61,006 nt of DNA from an uncultured Gammaproteobacteria bacterium (GTDB taxonomy: Bacteria > Pseudomonadota > Gammaproteobacteria > Arenicellales > JAANXG01), in the NCBI GenBank assembly GCA_947259175.1, contig CAMYKW010000014.1:1-61006 (forward strand). Direction: 5' to 3'. Position 1 is the stretch's first letter, and each line of letters begins with the position of its first letter. A program made the translations under genes and the position numbers. The notes beneath the pieces were generated by a model. It was not told where the DNA came from. It did no database searches and was given only the letters and a program-made list of their open reading frames with translations. Shown one piece after another: positions 1-9,358 of this stretch.

Positions 1-1
1 T

Positions 2-82
2 GCTGCTTTGCTGGAAGATGAGAAAAATTTCGTCGATCATTCAAAGTCTTCGGCGTTTATTGTTGAAGAACACGAATTCTAA
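2..82 (+). CDS. C-terminal end of an unidentified cassette protein (partial)
   Basis: An open frame enters from the left edge and ends at TAA 80-82, three bases before the first attC core at 85. The 26 visible residues are acidic and end in VEEHEF. The position, with the stop just before an attC, is what a cassette gene would show, so the frame is probably real. Too little remains to name a family. Confidence 0.45.
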   Translation, partial: AALLEDEKNFVDHSKSSAFIVEEHEF

Positions 83-84
83 GT

Positions 85-188
85 GGCTAACAAAGCGCTC
101 CAGTCGGAAAAAGTCGACCCATCATGCCTCTTGCTGTCGCAAAAGCCACGCCAGCTTGCCTTTGCCGCTGAGCTAGCACGTGTTATGT
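85..188 (+). other. attC recombination site 1
   Basis: The outer cores are GGCTAAC (85-91) and GTTATGT (182-188), about 104 bp apart. The left arm continues AAAGCGCTCCAGTCGG, a sequence typical of chromosomal-integron attC sites, and the right arm contains CCGCTGAGCTAGC, partly complementary to it. The stop codon of the reversed vapC (183-185 on the minus strand) lies inside the right core, so this site directly abuts the vapBC cassette. Confidence 0.75.
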
Positions 189-584
189 GCCAGGAAACGC
201 CTGTTTCAGCTCCAAGTGGCAAACGAAAGGCAGGAAGTCTTTATCGGTGAAAAGAAGCGGAAACTTTTGCTCGATACAAAATGTTGCAATTAATGTATCG
301 ACGGTCTTTCGAATGGTAAGGCCCTTGCTACGAAGGAAGCGATAATGCTCAGCGGCTTTTACCGCACGATTAGTGCCGATGATTTCAAATATGTGGAGCT
401 CCAGTAGAAGCGATTTAGCGGTTTTGAAATCCGCGTCGGATCTAAATCCCTGCAGGACCTCGGTAAGAATCAGATCTCCTATACCGACTGGTTCTACGCC
501 AAGGACCCCGTCGAGAAAATCGGTATGGGGATTGTTATTACCGCTGAAGTATTCAATCCATACGCTAGAATCGACCAGGATCAC
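183..584 (-). CDS. vapC: VapC-type PIN-domain ribonuclease toxin
   Basis: This 133-residue protein has the PIN-domain pattern of acidic residues: Asp5 in VDSSVW, Glu42 in LTEVLQG, Asp96 in TVDTLIA, and Asp114/Asp116 in LFTDKDF. Together these bind the metal used to cut RNA. It starts with GTG at 582-584, which shares one base with the TAG stop of the upstream antitoxin gene (TAGTG), so the two are translationally coupled. Length and motifs are complete, so the toxin is probably active. The pair runs opposite to the other cassettes and must use its own promoter. Its likely role is stabilising the array by addiction; which RNA it cleaves cannot be told from the sequence. Confidence 0.9.
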   Translation of the reverse strand: MILVDSSVWIEYFSGNNNPHTDFLDGVLGVEPVGIGDLILTEVLQGFRSDADFKTAKSLLLELHIFEIIGTNRAVKAAEHYRFLRSKGLTIRKTVDTLIATFCIEQKFPLLFTDKDFLPFVCHLELKQAFPGT

Positions 585-775
585 TAATCGGTTCTCATTT
601 CGTGCAGGTCACCCTGCCACCGCAGCTTCCCGCGGAACCCTCGAATTCGTTGTTGCTTTTTAAGCCGTATCAGGGTGCGGAGTCCCAGTTCCACGGCTTC
701 TCGCTTCGTTTTTGCGCCGGTCGCATTTATGGCGTCTCTCATGAGCTTGTCGTCAATTACGATGTTCGTTCTCAT
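584..775 (-). CDS. vapB: VapB-type antitoxin
   Basis: This is a 63-residue protein immediately upstream of vapC. The N-terminal half (MRTNIVIDDKLMRDAI and the following ALELGLR-like helix) fits a ribbon-helix-helix DNA-binding fold. The basic and aromatic C-terminal tail (RGFRGKLRWQGD) is the part that in this family wraps around the toxin. Size, order (antitoxin first) and the one-base overlap are those of type II vapBC operons. It should repress its own promoter through the palindrome at 787-816 and neutralise VapC. Confidence 0.85.
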   Translation of the reverse strand: MRTNIVIDDKLMRDAINATGAKTKREAVELGLRTLIRLKKQQRIRGFRGKLRWQGDLHEMRTD

Positions 776-786
776 TGCAATCGTCT

Positions 787-816
787 ATGTGTATAATATA
801 CTAACAGTATACACAT
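787..816 (-). promoter_or_regulatory. palindromic operator of vapBC
   Basis: Perfect 9-bp inverted arms ATGTGTATA (787-795) and TATACACAT (808-816) are separated by 12 bases. They sit 12 bp upstream of the vapB start, in AT-rich sequence that would also hold the promoter. This is the expected place and form for VapB/VapBC autoregulation. The binding protein is inferred. Confidence 0.65.
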
Positions 817-841
817 AATCTTACCCGGTACAAGTGGCACC

Positions 842-944
842 GTATAACAATGCGTTGCATGCGGACGCGCCTAACTGTCACTCGCCTTACTTGCGCAGCG
901 CTCTTGCCAGCTATACGGTGCGCCGGTGAACGCAGTCGTTAGGC
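842..944 (+). other. attC recombination site 2
   Basis: The site begins GTATAACAATGCGTTGCATG and ends AACGCAGTCGTTAGGC. TAACAATGCGTTGCA and GCGGACGC are typical attC left-arm sequences, and GTTAGGC (938-944) is a consensus right core. It separates the reversed vapBC cassette from the RelE/HigA cassette. The length is about 103 bp. Confidence 0.85.
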
Positions 945-962
945 GGAAGTGGAAGAACGTAA

Positions 963-1208
963 ATGCCAGAGATAAATCGGTTCTTAGGGATTGTAATTGC
1001 CATGTATTACAATGACCTCGTTCGGCTCTTTGGTCCCTTTGGGCTAAGACAGATCAAGGGATTTAACGACGAGGCGCTGCGGGGAGAGTGGCGAGGACAC
1101 TGCTTTTCAAGGCTCAGCCGCCAGTATCGAGTGATATATCGAATTGAGCGGGAACGAGTGCTTGTAGAGGTGGTAAGTGTGACAGCGCATGATTACCGTA
1201 CGAAGTGA
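963..1208 (+). CDS. RelE/HigB-type toxin with a DUF4160-like N-terminus
   Basis: The 81-residue product has two parts. The first 17-18 residues (MPEINRFLGIVIAMYYND) match the start of DUF4160 proteins. From about residue 20 it follows the RelE/StbE mRNA-interferase pattern: LRQIKGFND, ALRGEWRGH, RLSRQYRVIYR, then a beta strand and VTAHDYR at the end. The RelE part seems complete for a small ribosome-dependent RNase. The downstream HTH gene begins one base after the stop codon, which is the usual toxin-then-antitoxin arrangement of this subgroup. The chimeric start probably arose by recombination and supplies the start codon; it could alter toxin activity. Confidence 0.8.
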   Translation: MPEINRFLGIVIAMYYNDLVRLFGPFGLRQIKGFNDEALRGEWRGHCFSRLSRQYRVIYRIERERVLVEVVSVTAHDYRTK

Positions 1209-1209
1209 T

Positions 1210-1470
1210 ATGAGCGAATATCGAAAAGCTAGGAAAAGGGTGGAGGAATCGATTGGTGAATCGGTACGTATTCTCCGCGAGTTACAAGAACTTAACCAGA
1301 ATGAGCTGTCGGAGATGACCGGAATCCCGCAATCTACAATCTCGGCAATTGAACGGGATCGCATTCGATTGGGCCTAGAAAGGGCTAAGGTGCTTGCTCG
1401 CGCGCTGCGATGCTATCCGGCGGTTTTGGTATTTCCCGGCTGGGATGTGGAGCGTGAGTCGGCCGCCTGA
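1210..1470 (+). CDS. HigA-like XRE-family antitoxin
   Basis: The 86-residue protein carries a Cro/C1-type helix-turn-helix: ELNQNELSEMTGIPQSTISAIERDR-type helices at about residues 33-60. A conserved tail (AKVLARALRCYPAVLVFPGWD) follows. The ATG at 1210, one base after the toxin stop, is preferred over the in-frame ATG at 1189 inside the toxin gene because family members start MxEYRKAR. It should bind the RelE-type toxin and repress the operon. Its TGA stop lies inside the first core of the next attC. Confidence 0.85.
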   Translation: MSEYRKARKRVEESIGESVRILRELQELNQNELSEMTGIPQSTISAIERDRIRLGLERAKVLARALRCYPAVLVFPGWDVERESAA

Positions 1471-1530
1471 CAATCACTTGTAGACCAACGCCGCATTAGC
1501 GTGCGGCGCGGCTGAAGCGAGACGTTAGGC
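1465..1530 (+). other. attC recombination site 3
   Basis: This is a compact 66-bp site. Cores are GCCTGAC (1465-1471) and GTTAGGC (1524-1530), with CCGCATTAGCGTGCGG in the middle forming the hairpin tip (CCGCA/TGCGG). It overlaps the stop codon of the HTH antitoxin. Length and sequence resemble attC sites of mobile integrons. Confidence 0.9.
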
Positions 1531-1541
1531 CTGCTAAAATC

Positions 1542-1898
1542 ATGAGCGAATTCGTGGAATACCTCAACGAAGTGTTCGGGCGCTTTGGCCCAATCCATTC
1601 AAGGCGCATGTTTGGTGGCTATGGTGTGTATTACAATGATTTGATGTTTGCTCTCGTTGCCGACGATGTTCTTTATCTGAAAGCGGACTCGGAATCGTCG
1701 GAGTTGTTCGAAAAGCTCGGATTGAGCCCTTTCGAATACTTTAAAAACGGTAAGAAAATGAAAATGTCCTATTTCACTGCACCGGAGGAGATATTCGACG
1801 ATTTCGATGAAGCCAGAATTTGGGCGACTCGTGCGTATGAAGCGGCTTTGCGGTCGAAAAAACGCAAAAGAAGACTACATAGAGAAAATGACCCGAAG

Positions 1899-1904
<6 letters not shown>
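1542..1904 (+). CDS. TfoX N-terminal domain protein
   Basis: This is a 120-residue protein with the TfoX/Sxy N-terminal fold. The signature RRMFGGYGVYYNDLMFALVA lies at about residues 21-40, then DDVLYLKAD, FEYFKNGKKMKMSYFTAPEEIFDD and a long C-terminal helix rich in Lys/Arg. Stand-alone TfoX-N proteins are common integron cassettes. The domain is part of the competence regulator Sxy, but the function of the isolated domain is unknown. The gene begins 11 bases after one attC and ends inside the next, so it is a single-gene cassette. A second, different TfoX-N protein is at 4164-4493. Confidence 0.85.
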
Positions 1905-2512
<608 letters not shown>

Positions 2513-2545
2513 GGTTGTATAGCAAAACGCGATTCCTATTTCGAA

Positions 2546-2586
2546 AAGGTGAATTCGAATGTGGAATTATCATACTGATTCACCTT
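2546..2586 (+). promoter_or_regulatory. hairpin in the cold-shock gene leader
   Basis: A perfect 9-bp inverted repeat, AAGGTGAAT (2546-2554) and ATTCACCTT (2578-2586), is separated by 23 bases. It ends a few bases before the ribosome-binding site (GAGGAA, about 2593-2598) of the cold-shock gene. cspA-type mRNAs are known to be controlled by temperature-sensitive leader structure; that this hairpin does the same is inference. Confidence 0.45.
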
Positions 2587-2605
2587 CGAGATTGAGGAAT
2601 TGAAA

Positions 2606-2812
2606 ATGAGTAAAGGTACTGTTAAATGGTTCGATGCTGCTAAAGGTTATGGTTTCATCACACCCGACGACGGAGGAAAAGATCTCTTCGTTCATCATTC
2701 AGAAATTAAGAGCGGCGGCGATTACGCGACACTTAATGATGGTCAGAAAGTTGAATTTGAAGTCGGCCAAGGCCAGAAAGGCCCATGCGCAACTAACGTT
2801 GTGCCTGTTTAA
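2606..2812 (+). CDS. CspA-family cold-shock protein
   Basis: The 68-residue protein is a single cold-shock (S1-like OB-fold) domain. It has [20 protein letters not shown], with RNP1 as KGYGFIT at about residues 13-19, and DLFVHHS as RNP2 at about 27-33. It binds single-stranded RNA and DNA and acts as an RNA chaperone. ATG at 2606 is chosen because GAGGAA sits 8 bases upstream; an in-frame TTG at 2600 is less likely. It follows the last attC directly and may itself be a cassette that lost its own attC. Other homologues elsewhere in the genome are likely. Confidence 0.92.
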
Positions 2813-2840
2813 ATGCAGCGCAATTAATAGGAACATGCAG

Positions 2841-2866
2841 GCGGCGCGGCGTTACCGCCGCGCCGC
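2841..2866 (+). terminator. strong GC hairpin after the cold-shock gene
   Basis: A perfect 11-bp stem (2841-2851 with 2856-2866) closes a TTAC loop, 28 bases after the cold-shock stop. There is no T-tract, so it may be a weak or Rho-assisted terminator, an mRNA-stabilising structure, or the tip of a decayed attC. Confidence 0.4.
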
Positions 2867-2932
2867 TGATGCGGAGCGTTGTGCAGCCAACAAAGGATTG
2901 TTGCGTGAAGCGCAACGCGTAATATTTTGTGG

Positions 2933-3185
2933 ATGATCAAGTCGTTCAAGCACAAGGGATTTCGGCGATTTTGCGAGACAGAGAGCACGGCTGGTGTCCA
3001 ACCAGAGCATAGAAAACGGCTTCGACTACGGTTAGCTGCTTAGGATACCGCAGCATACATTGACGATCTGGAAGTCCTTGGATTTCGACTTAATCCGCTC
3101 AAAGGCGATCGCAAGGAGCTTTAGACTATTTCAGTGAGCGGTAGTTGGCGCATCATTTTTTGGATGCACGGTGGCCAATATGACC
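2933..3185 (+). pseudogene. higB-like toxin pseudogene (two in-frame stops)
   Basis: The frame from ATG 2933 reads as a HigB/plasmid-maintenance killer toxin: MIKSFKHKGFRRFCET, AGVQPEHRKRLRLRLAA, then DTAAYIDDLEVLGFRLNPLKG, DRKEL, TISVSGSWRIIF. It is broken by TAG at 3041-3043 (codon 37, usually Leu) and TAG at 3122-3124 (codon 64, where the family has Trp). After about codon 82 the similarity stops and no HigA-like antitoxin follows. It is therefore a dead toxin-antitoxin remnant, consistent with a decaying accessory region. Confidence 0.75.
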
Positions 3186-3315
3186 ACGGAGTTGCTGGCC
3201 ATCCTGTTGGCATGGAACGCGTCACCCGCCCAATTCTAATTCTGAACATCAGAACGTGAACTACAGATTCTCCGCATAAGGGTTAGTTCGGTTCTCAGTG
3301 CAACAAAGCGGCTAA

Positions 3316-3486
3316 TTGGATACCCTCACGAGCATGGTTTCGGCTCGGATGCTTTATCATCGTCTCGGTTTGGTAGAAATTGCGCCGCACAACGCGGCTC
3401 ACCTGCCGGGCACCCGTTTCTATGCACTCAAGCTGACCGCTTGTGAACACGGAACCAAGCCGGAGCCGTTTAGTGATTCGGTTTAG
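3316..3486 (+). pseudogene. GNAT acetyltransferase C-terminal remnant
   Basis: An open stretch begins right after a TAA (3313-3315) and reads LDTLTSMVSARMLYHRLG, then LVEIAPHNAAHLPGTRFYALKL. This is the last quarter of the GNAT N-acetyltransferase domain (LDT..SM..A..LY..LGF.EI motif, then the final beta strand). The N-terminal acetyl-CoA-binding part is missing upstream. A peptide from ATG 3334 could be made, but it would not be an enzyme. Confidence 0.65.
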
Positions 3487-3540
3487 CTTGGATAGTGTGC
3501 GCCAGTCAACTATTGATGAATTTCATATAGGATCCGAGCT

Positions 3541-4089
3541 ATGAAAGAAGCATTAGTAATTATTGATGTTCAAAATGACTACTTCGCGGGAGGTTCAATG
3601 GAGTTGGTCGGCATAGATGAAGCAGCATCGAATTGTGCAAAATTATTGGGTGATTTCCGATCCAGAGGTATTCCGCTTTTTCATATTCAACATGTTGCCG
3701 CCCGCGAAGGCGCGACGTTCTTTCTACCAGACACCGCGGGCTGTGAAATTCACGAAAGTGTGAAGCCGAAGATCGAAGAAACAGTTATGGTTAAACATTT
3801 CCCCAATGCCTTTCGTGCAACAGACTTGCAAGAGATGTTGAGTAAAGCAGGTGTTGAAGAAGTAGTCATCTGCGGAGCTATGACCCATATGTGAGTTGAT
3901 ACGACGGCTCGCGCCGCATTTGACTATGGATACACGTGTCGAGTCATTTCCGATGCATGCGCGACTAGAGACTTGGAATTTGACGGACAACTGGTGAAAG
4001 CACCGGAGGTCCAAGCCGCTTTTATGGCTGCGCTGAGCGCGCCGTTCGCGCAGATTTCGACAACAGACAAGTTTCTGCGACGTCCGTAG
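3541..4089 (+). pseudogene. isochorismatase-family cysteine hydrolase with TGA at the catalytic Cys codon
   Basis: Residues 1-117 are a normal isochorismatase-fold N-terminus: LVIIDVQNDYF with catalytic Asp9, Lys85 in VMVKHFPNAF, and CGAMTHM just before the stop. TGA at 3892-3894 (codon 118) stands exactly where the family has its nucleophilic Cys (GAMTHMC-V-D-T-T). The frame then stays open for 64 more codons to TAG 4087-4089 and still reads as family sequence (VDTTARAAFDYGY, VISDACATRDLEF, AFMAALSAPFAQI). The full length would be 182 residues, normal for the family. Either a single base change killed the enzyme (TGC/TGT to TGA), or UGA is read as selenocysteine. Nearby dead genes favour the first; the clean downstream frame keeps the second open. 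Confidence 0.8.
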
Positions 4090-4163
4090 GGGGGTCGCCA
4101 GAGGAATACGCGGACGAGCATATCCCTGAGCGATGGCTTGGACAGTTTTGAAAGGTAGTTACG

Positions 4164-4493
4164 ATGGGCTTTGATAGGAGTTTGGCGCAAAGGGTGCGCG
4201 AGGTGCTAGCGGAAGATAGCGTCGTCGACGAAAAGAAGATGTTTGGTGGTATCGCGTTTATGGTGTCGGGCAATATGTGTTGCGGTGTGATCGAAAACAA
4301 CCTGATGGGTCGTGTGGGGGCGGAGCAGTATGAGAACGCGTTGAAAGCGCCTCATACGCGAAAAATGGACTTTGCCGGCAAACCGTTGAGAGGTTTTATT
4401 TACGTCGGCGAGCGGGGTATTGCATCGGATGAAGAATTAAGAACCTGGATCAGTCGTTGCGAGAAATTCGTTAAAACGTTGCCTCCAAAGTGA
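4164..4493 (+). CDS. TfoX N-terminal domain protein
   Basis: The 109-residue protein begins with an amphipathic helix (RSLAQRVREVLAED), then KKMFGGIAFMVSGNMCCGVIENNLMGRVG, a RKMDFAGKPLRGFIYVG strand pair and a C-terminal helix. This is the TfoX_N pattern in the short form often annotated as a stand-alone TfoX/Sxy protein. The biochemical role is unknown; in Sxy the domain works with CRP at competence promoters. It is distinct from the cassette copy at 1542-1904, and no attC flanks it. AAAGG lies upstream of the ATG. Confidence 0.85.
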   Translation: MGFDRSLAQRVREVLAEDSVVDEKKMFGGIAFMVSGNMCCGVIENNLMGRVGAEQYENALKAPHTRKMDFAGKPLRGFIYVGERGIASDEELRTWISRCEKFVKTLPPK

Positions 4494-4781
4494 CAGACCG
4501 TTTAGCCGCACATCCCCGGACACGTGTGCCAATTGCAGTTACTCCCAGGTCCAATGCTGCCGCCTGCGCGCGCCCGTCCCGAATTCCGTGTGAATTTTCC
4601 ATGCTGCGTCGGTTAATAGCCTTTTCCCCGAGTGTTGGTTCCGAAGGAACCGGCTGTAATGATCAATTCACCCAAAGGGGTGAGGCAATTTGCTTTGTGA
4701 TGTGCTAATCATATGATGCGGCCGACACTGGGGCCGATGGAACTTGATGAGCGAGGGCGAGTCACACAAGGAGAAGATGGC

Positions 4782-5051
4782 ATGGAGAAAAGAAATGAGA
4801 TTGTTCGCGATGAATTGTCCATGGAAATTACAAGGCAAGGCCAAAAGTTGAGACTCATAGCGACACACACAGAGGATGATCAATGGCAGCTGTCGGTGGA
4901 GAACGAACGTGGCGTCAACACGACTTGGTTCGATTACTTTCTTACTCCCCAATCCGCGTTTGATGCCGGAATGAAAGCGATCGAGGAGGAGGGTGTAGCA
5001 GCGTTCACGGATGTAAAAGGTTTTGAGTACTTGCTTGAAGAGAATGGATAG
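4782..5051 (+). CDS. hypothetical protein
   Basis: The 89-residue soluble, acidic protein is not assigned to a family. ATG 4782 is chosen because AAGGAG (4769-4774) sits 7 bases upstream. Upstream in-frame codons lack such a site. The sequence alternates strands and helices (LSMEITRQGQKLRLIATHTED, QWQLSVENERGVNTTWFDYF, SAFDAGMKAIEEEGVAAF), suggesting a small alpha/beta fold. Neighbours are unrelated accessory genes. Confidence 0.6.
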   Translation: MEKRNEIVRDELSMEITRQGQKLRLIATHTEDDQWQLSVENERGVNTTWFDYFLTPQSAFDAGMKAIEEEGVAAFTDVKGFEYLLEENG

Positions 5052-5125
5052 CAGATCCTGCGTGGTCTATAGCGAGGCGTAGTGTGCTGATAAGCCTGTA
5101 GCGACGGGCTTTAGCGCGAAAAGCC

Positions 5126-5401
5126 ATGAACACCCATGTAAAGCAATATTTAGCGGCGCTCACCCCCCGAGCGCAGGATGCGTTTAATCACTCTCCATAC
5201 GTGATAGTGTCCTCCCATGGTTGGCCTGGGCGGTCCATGGTCGGTGACGAAGGCGCCGCCGCGGCGTGGTTGATTGCTCAACACGCGATTTGCACGCCCA
5301 ATCTTCGAAGAAGAATCCTGAAACATTTATCGAGCGCCGCCGATGTTGTGGATGTAGAAAGTTGCAGGTGTCTTGGTTTAGGTACGGAGGCGACGTCATG
5401 A
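5126..5401 (+). CDS. small protein resembling DUF6624
   Basis: The 91-residue product contains SSHGWPGRSMVGDEGAAAAW followed by LIAQHA at about residues 29-54. This resembles the GWPxxSLVGxxGAxAAWLIxQHA core of DUF6624 proteins, whose function is unknown. The sequence after about residue 68 does not look like the family, so the gene may be a truncated form. Its TGA overlaps the ATG of the next gene (ATGA, 5398-5401), suggesting translational coupling. The family call is moderate. Confidence 0.5.
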   Translation: MNTHVKQYLAALTPRAQDAFNHSPYVIVSSHGWPGRSMVGDEGAAAAWLIAQHAICTPNLRRRILKHLSSAADVVDVESCRCLGLGTEATS

Positions 5402-5769
5402 GACCTAGGTTTGAACCGGGACAGAACATTGCGATCAAGGTCCCCGCCCACGAATACGACAAAACTGTCTCATTTTATCAGGATATTTTAGGTTTGGAGC
5501 GCAAGTCCGACGACTCGGCCGATGAACGATACACGGTGGTATTTCGGTTCGGCGATAAAAATCTCTGGGTGGATCGACTATCATCGCTCAGCCAAGCGGA
5601 GATCTGGTTAGAAATCACAACGGACGATGCGGAAACAGCGGCATCATATCTGGACCAATGCGGCATTGCCCGGCGCGACGATATTGAGACGCTGCCCGAT
5701 GACTTCAGAGGTTTTTGGATATCGGGTCCCTCGAATATTATTCATCTGATGAGGGAAAAGGGTAAGTGA
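5398..5769 (+). CDS. VOC-family (glyoxalase-like) protein
   Basis: The 123-residue protein has a VOC fold with the N-terminal module IAIKVPAHEYDKTVSFYQDI-LGLE and the C-terminal module AEIWLEITTDDAETAASYLDQCGI, ending GFWISGPSNIIHLMREK. A His in VPAHEYD is present, but the usual C-terminal Glu is replaced (IIHLM), so metal binding may be altered. The ATG at 5398 overlaps the previous stop; an upstream extension of this frame lies inside that gene and is rejected. The substrate is unknown. It differs from the cassette VOC protein at 2012-2398. Confidence 0.8.
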   Translation: MRPRFEPGQNIAIKVPAHEYDKTVSFYQDILGLERKSDDSADERYTVVFRFGDKNLWVDRLSSLSQAEIWLEITTDDAETAASYLDQCGIARRDDIETLPDDFRGFWISGPSNIIHLMREKGK

Positions 5770-5859
5770 CACGCGAGCATCTATTTGCAATGGATGCAGT
5801 TCTGGTGGCCGCGTCGGGATCGGGGCACCACACGCCGACAATTGTAGGGGAGTCCGCCA

Positions 5860-6252
5860 ATGACGACCGAGTTTAATCGCCAACCTTCAAGCTGGAGGTT
5901 TAATCTCCACGATGATACCCAGGGTATCCATAGACAACTGGCGGAAGGTATCAATACCCGTATATTTGCGGGACAAAACGTCATGCTCTCGGTGGTCCGC
6001 ATAGCGCCCCACTCGAGCGGAACCGTACACAGCCATCCGGAAGAGCAATGGGGTGTGTTGCTCGAGGGAGAGTGTGTCCGCATACAGGGTGGCGAGGAGT
6101 TGGCGATGCGGCCCGGCGATTTCTGGTATACACCGGGTGGCGTGACGCATTCGGTAAGGACCGGGGAAGCGGGCGCCACGATCCTCGATATATTCAGTCC
6201 GCCGAGAAGTGAGTATCAAAGGCTGGGGCAGGGATTCGGCGCGAATACCTGA
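5860..6252 (+). CDS. cupin-domain protein
   Basis: The 130-residue single-domain cupin has motif 1 as SGTVHSHPEEQWGVLLEG (His, His, Glu metal ligands at about residues 52-57) and motif 2 as PGDFWYTPGGVTHSV (His at about residue 96). This is a metal-binding beta barrel. Such stand-alone cupins are dioxygenases, isomerases or sugar-binding sensors, and no substrate can be inferred. It lies 90 bp after the VOC gene on the same strand; a GGGGAG just before the start serves as ribosome-binding site. Confidence 0.85.
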   Translation: MTTEFNRQPSSWRFNLHDDTQGIHRQLAEGINTRIFAGQNVMLSVVRIAPHSSGTVHSHPEEQWGVLLEGECVRIQGGEELAMRPGDFWYTPGGVTHSVRTGEAGATILDIFSPPRSEYQRLGQGFGANT

Positions 6253-6369
6253 TCCTGGATACACTAACGTTCACTTGTTGCGCACGCAGTTGTACTAACA
6301 TTTCTGCGCAGCTTGGTTTACGTGGCGATAACAACGATTCAGACTATTTCAAAGGCAAGGAGAAAATAG

Positions 6370-6657
6370 ATGGCAAACGAAGGGTATCACGAACCCATCA
6401 GTGAACTTTCAGACGAAACCCGCGATATGCATCGCGCTATCGTTTCTCTCATGGAGGAGTTGGAGGCGGTTGATTGGTACAACCAAAGGGTTGATGCATG
6501 CAGCGACGAAGACCTCAAGGCAATTCTGGCCCATAACCGGGATGAAGAGAAGGAGCACGCCGCCATGGTTCTTGAGTGGATACGCCGCAGAGACCCCAGC
6601 TTCGATAAGGAGCTGAAAGATTACCTTTTCACAGATAAACCCATCGCTCATAAATAG
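6370..6657 (+). CDS. EncFtn-type encapsulated ferritin-like protein (no encapsulin nearby)
   Basis: The 95-residue protein matches the two-helix encapsulated ferritin family: YHEPISELSDETRDMHRAIV, SLMEELEAVDWYNQRVDAC, AILAHNRDEEKEHAAMVLEW, then YLFTDKPIAH. The likely ferroxidase ligands Glu30, Glu60 and His63 correspond to Glu32, Glu62 and His65 of the Rhodospirillum rubrum protein. The family forms ring-shaped decamers that oxidise Fe(II) inside encapsulin shells. Two things are odd. The protein ends at IAHK with no C-terminal encapsulin-targeting tail, and no encapsulin gene is in the window although it normally follows directly. It may act without a shell or use a distant one. Confidence 0.88.
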   Translation: MANEGYHEPISELSDETRDMHRAIVSLMEELEAVDWYNQRVDACSDEDLKAILAHNRDEEKEHAAMVLEWIRRRDPSFDKELKDYLFTDKPIAHK

Positions 6658-6919
6658 ACCGGCCAGGTACACCGTCTGCAGGTTGCTTTGAATTTGCGTG
6701 GATTAGCGGGGTTGTCGCGCCGCCGTCGTGCGATAACAGACATACGAAGCGGAGAGCGAACCACACCGATAATAGTAGAGGACTGAGCAATAATGAGGAA
6801 AAAGGGGACGTTTTTGACTATTATTGAGGTGTCTAATGGAATTACATTTACGGGCTCGTGCTCAGGGTGATTAGGTAGTACGTACGACATCGCGATACAG
6901 GCGACCCCGCGGCCGGCAT

Positions 6920-9358
6920 ATGAGCCCGGCTGAGATCGTGGATAGTCAAGACGAAAAAGGTCATCTCGATCTGGATCATGATCTGGAGGTGCGCCGGTCG
7001 ACCTATGAATGGTCGAAACGCGTATTCAGGGTCCTGCAAAAGATTCTGAAGGTTAACCTCAAGCTGCATCAAAGCGGAAACCAGATCCAACAAGGCGATA
7101 TATTCCTGTTTAATCACTTCGCCCGTTTTGAGACGTTCATACCGCAATATCTTATCTACGTAGAGACCGGCGCTACCTCTCGGTCGGTCGCCGCCAGTGA
7201 ATTCTTCGTAAAGGACGATCCGTTCTCGACTTACTTATTGAACGCCGGTGCGGTACCTCACCATATGCCGGACCTGCTGCCGTTCTTGGCGGCGGAAATC
7301 ATGCGCGGACAAAAAGTTATCGTGTTTCCGGAGGGAGGCATGGTAAAAGATCGCCGCGTATTGGATAGCCGCGGCAAATACAGCATCTACTCGCGTAGTT
7401 CCAAGGAGAGGCGAAAGCACCATACCGGACCCGCCGTGCTTGGTCTCGCCCTGGACATTTTTAAACGGAGGATATTGCAGGCTCATCAGCATCGTGATCT
7501 CGACAAACTGGAAGCGTGGACCGAGCAATTGCGTCTTGACGACGTGGATCAGTTGCTGGCGGCGGCCAATCGACCGACGGTTATCGTTCCTGCTAACATC
7601 ACGTTCTACCCAATTAGAGTCAGCGACAATATGCTGCGTAGGATTGCGGAGTTGTTAAACAAGGGAATGAGCCGGCGCTTGTCAGAAGAGTTATTAATCG
7701 AGGGAAACATACTGCTAAAGAACACCGACATGGACGTTCGCCTGGGGAACGGCATTCATCCCGCGGACTATTGGCGGTTCCTAGACAAAAGACTGCTGGC
7801 GAAAGTGTTACCGCGCATTAACAGGATGGAACAAGTATTTGATCTGAACTCGGCGCTTCCCACGTGGGACATACGGTTGCTGTCGCGCAACATGCAGCGG
7901 ACGGTAAATAAGCTGCGCAACGAATACATGCGACGCATGTATTCGAACGTTACCGTCAATCTCAGTCACTTGGCTTCTCATCTGGTGCTGGAGCTTGTGG
8001 ATCGAGGGCGCATAGAAATTGAGAAGGAGCTGTTCCATAAGATGTTGTATAAAGCGGTCAAACATGTGCAACATGCGACATCGGTTCACCTCCATAGAAG
8101 TCTTTTGAATCCGGACGCGTATGCCGGTTTGCTGCAGGGTGAATGCGATGGACTGTCACAATTTCTTAGAACCACGACTTCAATGGCGCTGCTGACAAGC
8201 ACCGACGGTATCTACAGTTTCCAACCGAAACTACGCGAGGAGCACGCGTTTGACGAAATACGGCTGGAAAACCTGATCGCGGTGTACGCAAACGAGGTGG
8301 CGCCTGTGTTTGAGGTGCATCGCGCGGTAAGCTTGGCCATCAAAAAGGCGGTGAAACTTAGCGGCCGGGAGCTGGCCATGTTGCGCTTCGACGATGAGTT
8401 GGTTGCGTTTGTCTGGGACAAGGCGCAGTACTCGAAACCGCGACATGCTTCGATCAACGAGGGTGAAACAGCCACTGCTGACGCGGCGCCATTCTTGTTG
8501 AAGCCCCGGCGCAGGGCGGACACAGGCGTTGTACTAGTGCACGGATTTCTCGCTTCCCCAGCGGAAGTCCGCGAGTTCGGCGAAAGGCTGGCGGAGCATG
8601 GTCATCCGGTACTTGGGGTCAGACTCAAAGGACATGGCACCTCACCCTGGGACTTGCGGGATCGCAGCTGGTCGGACTGGTTGGCCTCGGTAAGGCGCGG
8701 CTGCGAGATCATGGCGGGATTGAGCGAGCGGATCGTGCTGGTTGGTTTTTCCACCGGCGGTGCTTTATGTCTGCGCCTGGCTGCCGAGCAACCGGAACGC
8801 TTAGTCGGAGTAGCGGCGGTGGCGGTGCCGTTTAAATTTCGTAATAAAAACATGGTATTCGTTCCGCTGATGCACGGCGCGAATCGTTTGGTGCGGTGGG
8901 CGTCCTCGTATGAGGGCATCGTACCGTTTCGCAGCAATCACACGTCGGAGCAACCAGGCATCAACTACCGGCAGATGCCGATCCGCGGACTATACGAGCT
9001 GCGGCAAATGCTTAACGACATGGAGCGACATTTGGGAGATGTGGATTGTCCGGTTCTTTTGTTGCAGGGCAGCGATGATCCCATTGTTGTTCCAGACGGC
9101 GCGAAACAAATCTATGACCGGCTGACGCATCCCGACAAGACATTGAAAATGATCGCTTCCGAGCGTCATGGGATTTTGAAGGAAAACATCGGAGATACGC
9201 AGCAATCCATCATCGATTTTGTTGCGAAAACGTTGCATTATGAACGGCCGGCAGCGCACACACCGCCGCCCGCGAACGATACGCCGTCAGCCGCAGCAGA
9301 TGAGAAAGAACTGCAGGACGAATTCCCGTGCAAGAGTCTCGAGGCGGAGAAGGTCTAG
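6920..9358 (+). CDS. PlsC-like acyltransferase fused to an alpha/beta hydrolase
   Basis: This is an 812-residue fusion. The N-terminal half has an acyltransferase signature with NHFARFE (His66, Glu71 in place of the usual HX4D acid) and VIVFPEGG (about 134-140), so it should move acyl chains onto glycerol-phosphate-like acceptors. The part from about residue 534 is an alpha/beta hydrolase: LVHGFLASP, nucleophile in GFSTGG (about 608), acid in GSDDP (about 717) and His in SERHG (about 749), resembling monoacylglycerol lipases/carboxylesterases. No membrane segment is evident. Together they could remodel lipids by deacylation and reacylation. The last 60 residues are low complexity, and the stop codon lies in an inverted-repeat element. 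An acyl-CoA ligase follows. Confidence 0.85.
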   Translation: MSPAEIVDSQDEKGHLDLDHDLEVRRSTYEWSKRVFRVLQKILKVNLKLHQSGNQIQQGDIFLFNHFARFETFIPQYLIYVETGATSRSVAASEFFVKDDPFSTYLLNAGAVPHHMPDLLPFLAAEIMRGQKVIVFPEGGMVKDRRVLDSRGKYSIYSRSSKERRKHHTGPAVLGLALDIFKRRILQAHQHRDLDKLEAWTEQLRLDDVDQLLAAANRPTVIVPANITFYPIRVSDNMLRRIAELLNKGMSRRLSEELLIEGNILLKNTDMDVRLGNGIHPADYWRFLDKRLLAKVLPRINRMEQVFDLNSALPTWDIRLLSRNMQRTVNKLRNEYMRRMYSNVTVNLSHLASHLVLELVDRGRIEIEKELFHKMLYKAVKHVQHATSVHLHRSLLNPDAYAGLLQGECDGLSQFLRTTTSMALLTSTDGIYSFQPKLREEHAFDEIRLENLIAVYANEVAPVFEVHRAVSLAIKKAVKLSGRELAMLRFDDELVAFVWDKAQYSKPRHASINEGETATADAAPFLLKPRRRADTGVVLVHGFLASPAEVREFGERLAEHGHPVLGVRLKGHGTSPWDLRDRSWSDWLASVRRGCEIMAGLSERIVLVGFSTGGALCLRLAAEQPERLVGVAAVAVPFKFRNKNMVFVPLMHGANRLVRWASSYEGIVPFRSNHTSEQPGINYRQMPIRGLYELRQMLNDMERHLGDVDCPVLLLQGSDDPIVVPDGAKQIYDRLTHPDKTLKMIASERHGILKENIGDTQQSIIDFVAKTLHYERPAAHTPPPANDTPSAAADEKELQDEFPCKSLEAEKV

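What the first reader, a model, noticed from the sequence alone, without database searches (positions are those of the whole stretch)
3541..4089. TGA exactly at the catalytic Cys codon of an isochorismatase-family hydrolase
The gene is otherwise intact: catalytic Asp9 and Lys85 are present, and the frame reads on for 64 family-like codons after the TGA at 3892-3894 to a normal-length C-terminus. The only change is at the nucleophile position, where the family has Cys. This is the UGA/Cys-pair signature used to detect selenoproteins. A simple nonsense mutation is the more ordinary explanation, because dead genes lie just upstream. Two short hairpins follow the TGA (3905-3916 and 3921-3946), but neither clearly fits the usual bacterial SECIS form.
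Basis: partly seen in the sequence, partly recalled or inferred. Interest (0 to 1): 0.62.

Follow-up and report, generated by a model that had tools for sequence, protein, structure and literature searches.

The report
Nonsense-mutated hydrolase beside an integron array
A stop codon sits where this enzyme gene should encode its catalytic cysteine, but none of the genes needed to read it as selenocysteine was found in the genome, so it is most likely an ordinary, recently broken gene of a kind carried by integrons.

Summary
Window 3541-4089 is an isochorismatase-family (PF00857) cysteine-hydrolase frame with one TGA, at the catalytic Cys codon 118. In the 104 other loci whose alignment reached that codon, the residue is Cys.

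The selenoprotein reading fails. In this draft genome (97.7% complete) selA gave no hit. selB and selD gave only hits far below cut-off; the best look like IF-2 and ThiL. All 14 tRNA-Sec-model hits coincide with ordinary tRNA genes, and none of the 37 tRNA genes found has a UCA anticodon. No Rfam family matches around the codon.

The surroundings explain it better. The contig starts with attC-type sites and cassette-like genes; the genome holds an uninterrupted integron integrase next to the same attC type. Intact homologues in a same-genus relative, Aliivibrio and Vibrio sit at attC sites. A HigB-like gene just upstream has two in-frame stops. Residues after the TGA remain conserved, so the stop is recent, or a sequence error.

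Verdict: ordinary nonsense lesion or sequence error, not a selenoprotein.

The parts
3541..4089 (+). isochorismatase-family cysteine hydrolase frame, interrupted
   Evidence: PF00857, E 1.1e-41 read through
3892..3894 (+). in-frame TGA at the catalytic Cys codon 118
2933..3211 (+). HigB-like gene with in-frame TAG at 3041-3043 and 3122-3124 (pseudogene)
   Evidence: PF05015, E 5.8e-13 with X at the stops; stops counted; the end coordinate is that of the stretch checked
83..192 (+). attC-type site, same type as 11 other places in the genome
869..944 (+). attC-like inverted repeat
   Evidence: scan
1465..1530 (+). attC-like inverted repeat
   Evidence: scan
1899..1993 (+). attC-like inverted repeat
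   Evidence: scan

Best explanation
A cysteine hydrolase gene of a type carried as an integron cassette, lying just beyond an attC-bearing stretch at the end of a contig, has recently taken one nonsense substitution that happens to fall on its catalytic Cys codon. Shown: the TGA, no detected Sec system, the integron context, and conserved sequence after the TGA. Inferred: ribosomes stop after codon 117 and make a fragment without the nucleophile and without the last 64 residues, which should be inactive; the lesion persists because the gene is dispensable; and this copy itself arrived as a cassette.
For: No selA; selB and selD hits below cut-off and of other families; tRNA-Sec-model hits are ordinary tRNAs; no UCA anticodon among 37 tRNA genes; RF2 present; selA in 0 of 6 genomes of the genus, own included; no Rfam match. 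Integron: own intI (480.6 bits, over cut-off) with the same attC type on its contig, attC-type sites in the window, homologues at attC sites. Decay next door: HigB-like gene with two TAG.
Against: No attC was recognised directly beside this copy, so its cassette status is inferred from relatives. Apart from the TGA the frame shows no decay, and its 3' part is as similar to homologues as intact copies are to each other, which fits a sequence error equally well. The genome is a draft in 121 contigs, so absence of genes is not proof.
Confidence: 0.75

Rival explanations
1. The TGA is a consensus or base-calling error, or a minority-strain base, in a fragmented draft assembly; the real gene is intact.
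For: Single interruption, otherwise conserved frame; draft of 121 contigs.
Against: Nothing direct: reads were not available. The HigB-like gene nearby shows that real-looking lesions occur in this stretch.
Confidence: 0.18
2. A shortened 117-residue protein is made and kept by selection for another role.
For: Start and open frame up to codon 117.
Against: It lacks the nucleophile and the C-terminal part of the domain; conservation continues after the stop, which a selected truncation would not explain.
Confidence: 0.04
3. The UGA is decoded (as selenocysteine, cysteine or another residue), giving a full-length enzyme.
For: Exact position at the nucleophile, conserved downstream frame.
Against: No selA, selB, selC or selD detected; no UCA anticodon among 37 tRNA genes; 17 of 35 long non-overlapping frames in the window end in TGA and RF2 is present; no SECIS-type match; none of 104 homologue rows has a stop at the codon.
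Confidence: 0.02

Closest known systems
Isochorismatase-family cysteine hydrolases (PF00857) carried as integron cassettes (Aliivibrio sifiae L016, Vibrio sp. 99-70-13A1 L017, genus relative L097)
   Same: About 70-72% protein identity over residues 1-179, same Asp-Lys-Cys frame apart from codon 118; the homologues sit at attC sites. Isochorismatase is listed for 22 cassettes in the ACID database (PMC2674596, one passage read).
   Different: The window copy has TGA at the Cys codon and no recognised attC directly beside it.
Bacterial selenoproteins (UGA/Cys pairs)
   Same: In-frame TGA aligned with Cys in homologues.
   Different: No Sec machinery detected, no SECIS-type match, no second TGA-bearing homologue among those read. 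A published link of isochorismatase-like genes to selenium is only genomic neighbourhood to orphan selD (PMC5029168 and PMC9312934, passages read), and no selD was found here.

Membership tests
Bacterial selenoprotein | In-frame UGA aligned with Cys in homologues | tested here: met
   TGA here, Cys in 104 of 104 other aligned loci
Bacterial selenoprotein | selA, selB, selC and selD in the genome | tested here: not met
   selA 0 hits; selB best 92.9 of 242 bits needed, an IF-2-like frame; selD best 72.1 of 125, a ThiL-like frame; 14 tRNA-Sec-model hits all at ordinary tRNAs. In one search, 150 of 676 candidates were scored. Draft, 97.7% complete
Bacterial selenoprotein | SECIS hairpin directly after the UGA | tested here: inconclusive
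   No Rfam match; fold z -1.67, 12 of 200 shuffles as good. I compared it with the bacterial SECIS form from memory; no SECIS-specific model was run
Bacterial selenoprotein | UGA conserved in other species | tested here: not met
   0 of 104 aligned loci
UGA-reassigned or suppressor-tRNA decoding | tRNA with UCA anticodon | tested here: not met
   None among 37 tRNA genes found; the set lacks some isotypes, so it is incomplete
PF00857 cysteine hydrolase | Domain match with Asp, Lys, Cys catalytic residues | tested here: not met
   Domain matched and Asp9, Lys85 present, but the Cys codon is TGA; a member by descent, not as a working enzyme. The triad itself is recalled knowledge
Integron gene cassette | Gene bounded by attC, in a genome with intI | tested here: inconclusive
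   intI and attC type present, homologues at attC; no attC recognised directly beside this copy

The most novel reading that the evidence does not exclude
The UGA is decoded as a catalytically competent residue by a tRNA or factor lying in the unassembled part of this genome, making this a recoded cysteine hydrolase of integron-cassette type.
Probability: 0.02. Interest if true: 0.75.

Novelty: new member of a known kind. Interest (0 to 1): 0.1.

Why it matters
Mainly as a caution: a UGA/Cys pair in a single genome, even at a nucleophile codon with a conserved downstream frame, is no evidence for selenocysteine until the decoding genes are checked. It also adds one example of gene decay beside a chromosomal integron array.

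Tried and rejected
Selenocysteine decoding: rejected because selA, selB, selC and selD were not found. UGA-decoding tRNA: none among the 37 tRNA genes found. Old pseudogene: not supported, the part after the TGA is still conserved. A second intact copy in the genome: none found. A GNAT acetyltransferase remnant at 3334-3486 was suspected from memory; neither Pfam nor tblastn against plasmids supports it, so it is not claimed. An attC-like stretch at about 2395-2512, seen by eye, was not returned by the scans and is not claimed. dN/dS: for the 11 pairs with this gene dS was undefined or above 1.9, so only identity and dN were used. Ordinary stops in rows L069 and L082 lie at the normal C-terminus.

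Literature: 'selenoprotein' + 'isochorismatase' + 'UGA' gave 2 papers; passages were read in both, and none shown describes a Sec-containing isochorismatase. 'isochorismatase' + 'integron' + 'gene cassette' gave 3 papers; one passage of PMC2674596 was read. Searches were seen as listings only.

Full report
Observation. The frame 3541-4089 exists as described: 182 codons with one in-frame TGA at codon 118. Pfam places it in PF00857, and the pieces before and after the TGA match separately. Asp9, Lys85 and codon 118 fall at the stated positions. Of 110 related loci, 105 aligned and covered the codon and five did not align. One of the 105 is this gene; the other 104 have Cys. At least four of those are one contig fetched twice. 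These are not all known relatives: one search kept the best 80 of 427, and of the 863 plasmid records only one was read at this codon (L156, Cys). The query carried Cys at the position, and one of the six search patterns included it. The nearest same-genus homologue, L097, is intact and 70% identical. No second copy was found in the genome.

Selenocysteine test. The draft genome has 4.18 Mb in 121 contigs and is 97.7% complete. selA: no match. selB: the best of 7 hits scores 92.9 bits against a cut-off of 242.25; the frame under it reads as IF-2. selD: the best of 3 hits scores 72.1 against 125; the frame reads as ThiL. The names IF-2 and ThiL are my reading of the sequences, not a search result. 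tRNA-Sec: two hits passed the cut-off, and ARAGORN calls them tRNA-Ser(CGA) and tRNA-Leu(TAA); the other 12 of the 14 hits also coincide with ordinary tRNA genes. In one search, 150 of 676 candidates were scored. All 37 tRNA genes found were read; none has a UCA anticodon, but the set lacks some isotypes, so it is incomplete. RF2 is present, and 17 of 35 long non-overlapping frames in the window end in TGA. selA was absent from 6 of 6 genomes of the genus, own included, with completeness from 74% up. Rfam gave nothing in the whole window at gathering thresholds and nothing in 3800-4150 up to E 10. The stretch after the TGA folds at -18 kcal/mol, with 12 of 200 shuffles as good.

Context. The window is contig C14 from its first base. 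Its attC-type site at 83-192 is one of 12 matches in the genome. Another, at C30:69438-69532, lies beside an uninterrupted integron integrase at C30:68062-69003 (480.6 bits). Attc-like inverted repeats lie at 869-944, 1465-1530 and 1899-1993. The same criteria gave 5 hits on each strand in the remaining 54.5 kb, about 0.6 per strand per 6.5 kb, and two of the three sites also score on the minus strand because they are palindromic. A related, looser scan of 1-8000 found two of these sites, and five shuffles gave 3, 0, 0, 0 and 1 hits, so single sites are weak evidence and the 83-192 site is the strongest. Domains among these sites are HTH_3, TfoX_N and Glyoxalase and a cold-shock domain. In the genus relative the intact gene starts 35 bases after an 85% identical copy of the 83-192 site and lies near a truncated integron integrase. 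In Aliivibrio sifiae (L016) attC repeats lie on both sides of the homologue; in Vibrio sp. 99-70-13A1 (L017) too, though the downstream one is matched over 42 bases only. Isochorismatase is a listed cassette annotation (PMC2674596, one passage read). No attC was recognised directly beside the window copy, so calling this copy a cassette is inference.

Decay. Just upstream, a HigB-like gene carries two in-frame TAG codons. The hydrolase shows only the TGA. Against its 11 compared homologues (10 distinct) protein identity is 0.60-0.68 before and 0.69-0.80 after the TGA. Among four intact copies (six pairs) it is 0.64-0.95 before and 0.70-0.98 after, with the later part higher in 4 of 6 pairs. 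So there is no sign of relaxed constraint after the TGA. That means the stop is recent or is an error in the consensus; nothing here separates the two.

Conclusion. A recent nonsense mutation, or a sequence error, in a hydrolase gene of integron-cassette type accounts for what was seen. The coincidence with the catalytic codon is roughly 1 in 55 for a random stop and 1 in 18 given TGA (from, assuming equal rates and a Cys codon before), and such cases are expected when many genes are scanned. The finding is ordinary.

Noticed in passing
window 83-192; G000:C30:68062-69532; G000:C8:84385-86280; G000:C17:46809-47945: A chromosomal integron: an uninterrupted integrase on C30 and 12 copies of one attC type on eight contigs, five of them within 2 kb on C8.
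   Followed up: partly
L097 242-889 (minus strand): In the same-genus relative the integron integrase near the intact hydrolase is cut short: it matches positions 1-170 of 315 of TIGR02249.
   Followed up: partly
window 2933-3211: HigB-like toxin-antitoxin gene with two in-frame TAG codons.
   Followed up: yes
window 6370-6654: EncFtn-like (encapsulated ferritin-like) protein, PF22277 E 1.1e-45, in the genes beyond the array.
   Followed up: no
L156 4001-4885 (NZ_CP101696.1, Photobacterium toruni plasmid): The homologue's start leader is the same as in the Vibrio and Aliivibrio loci, and an annotated integrase fragment overlaps its end on the other strand.
   Followed up: no
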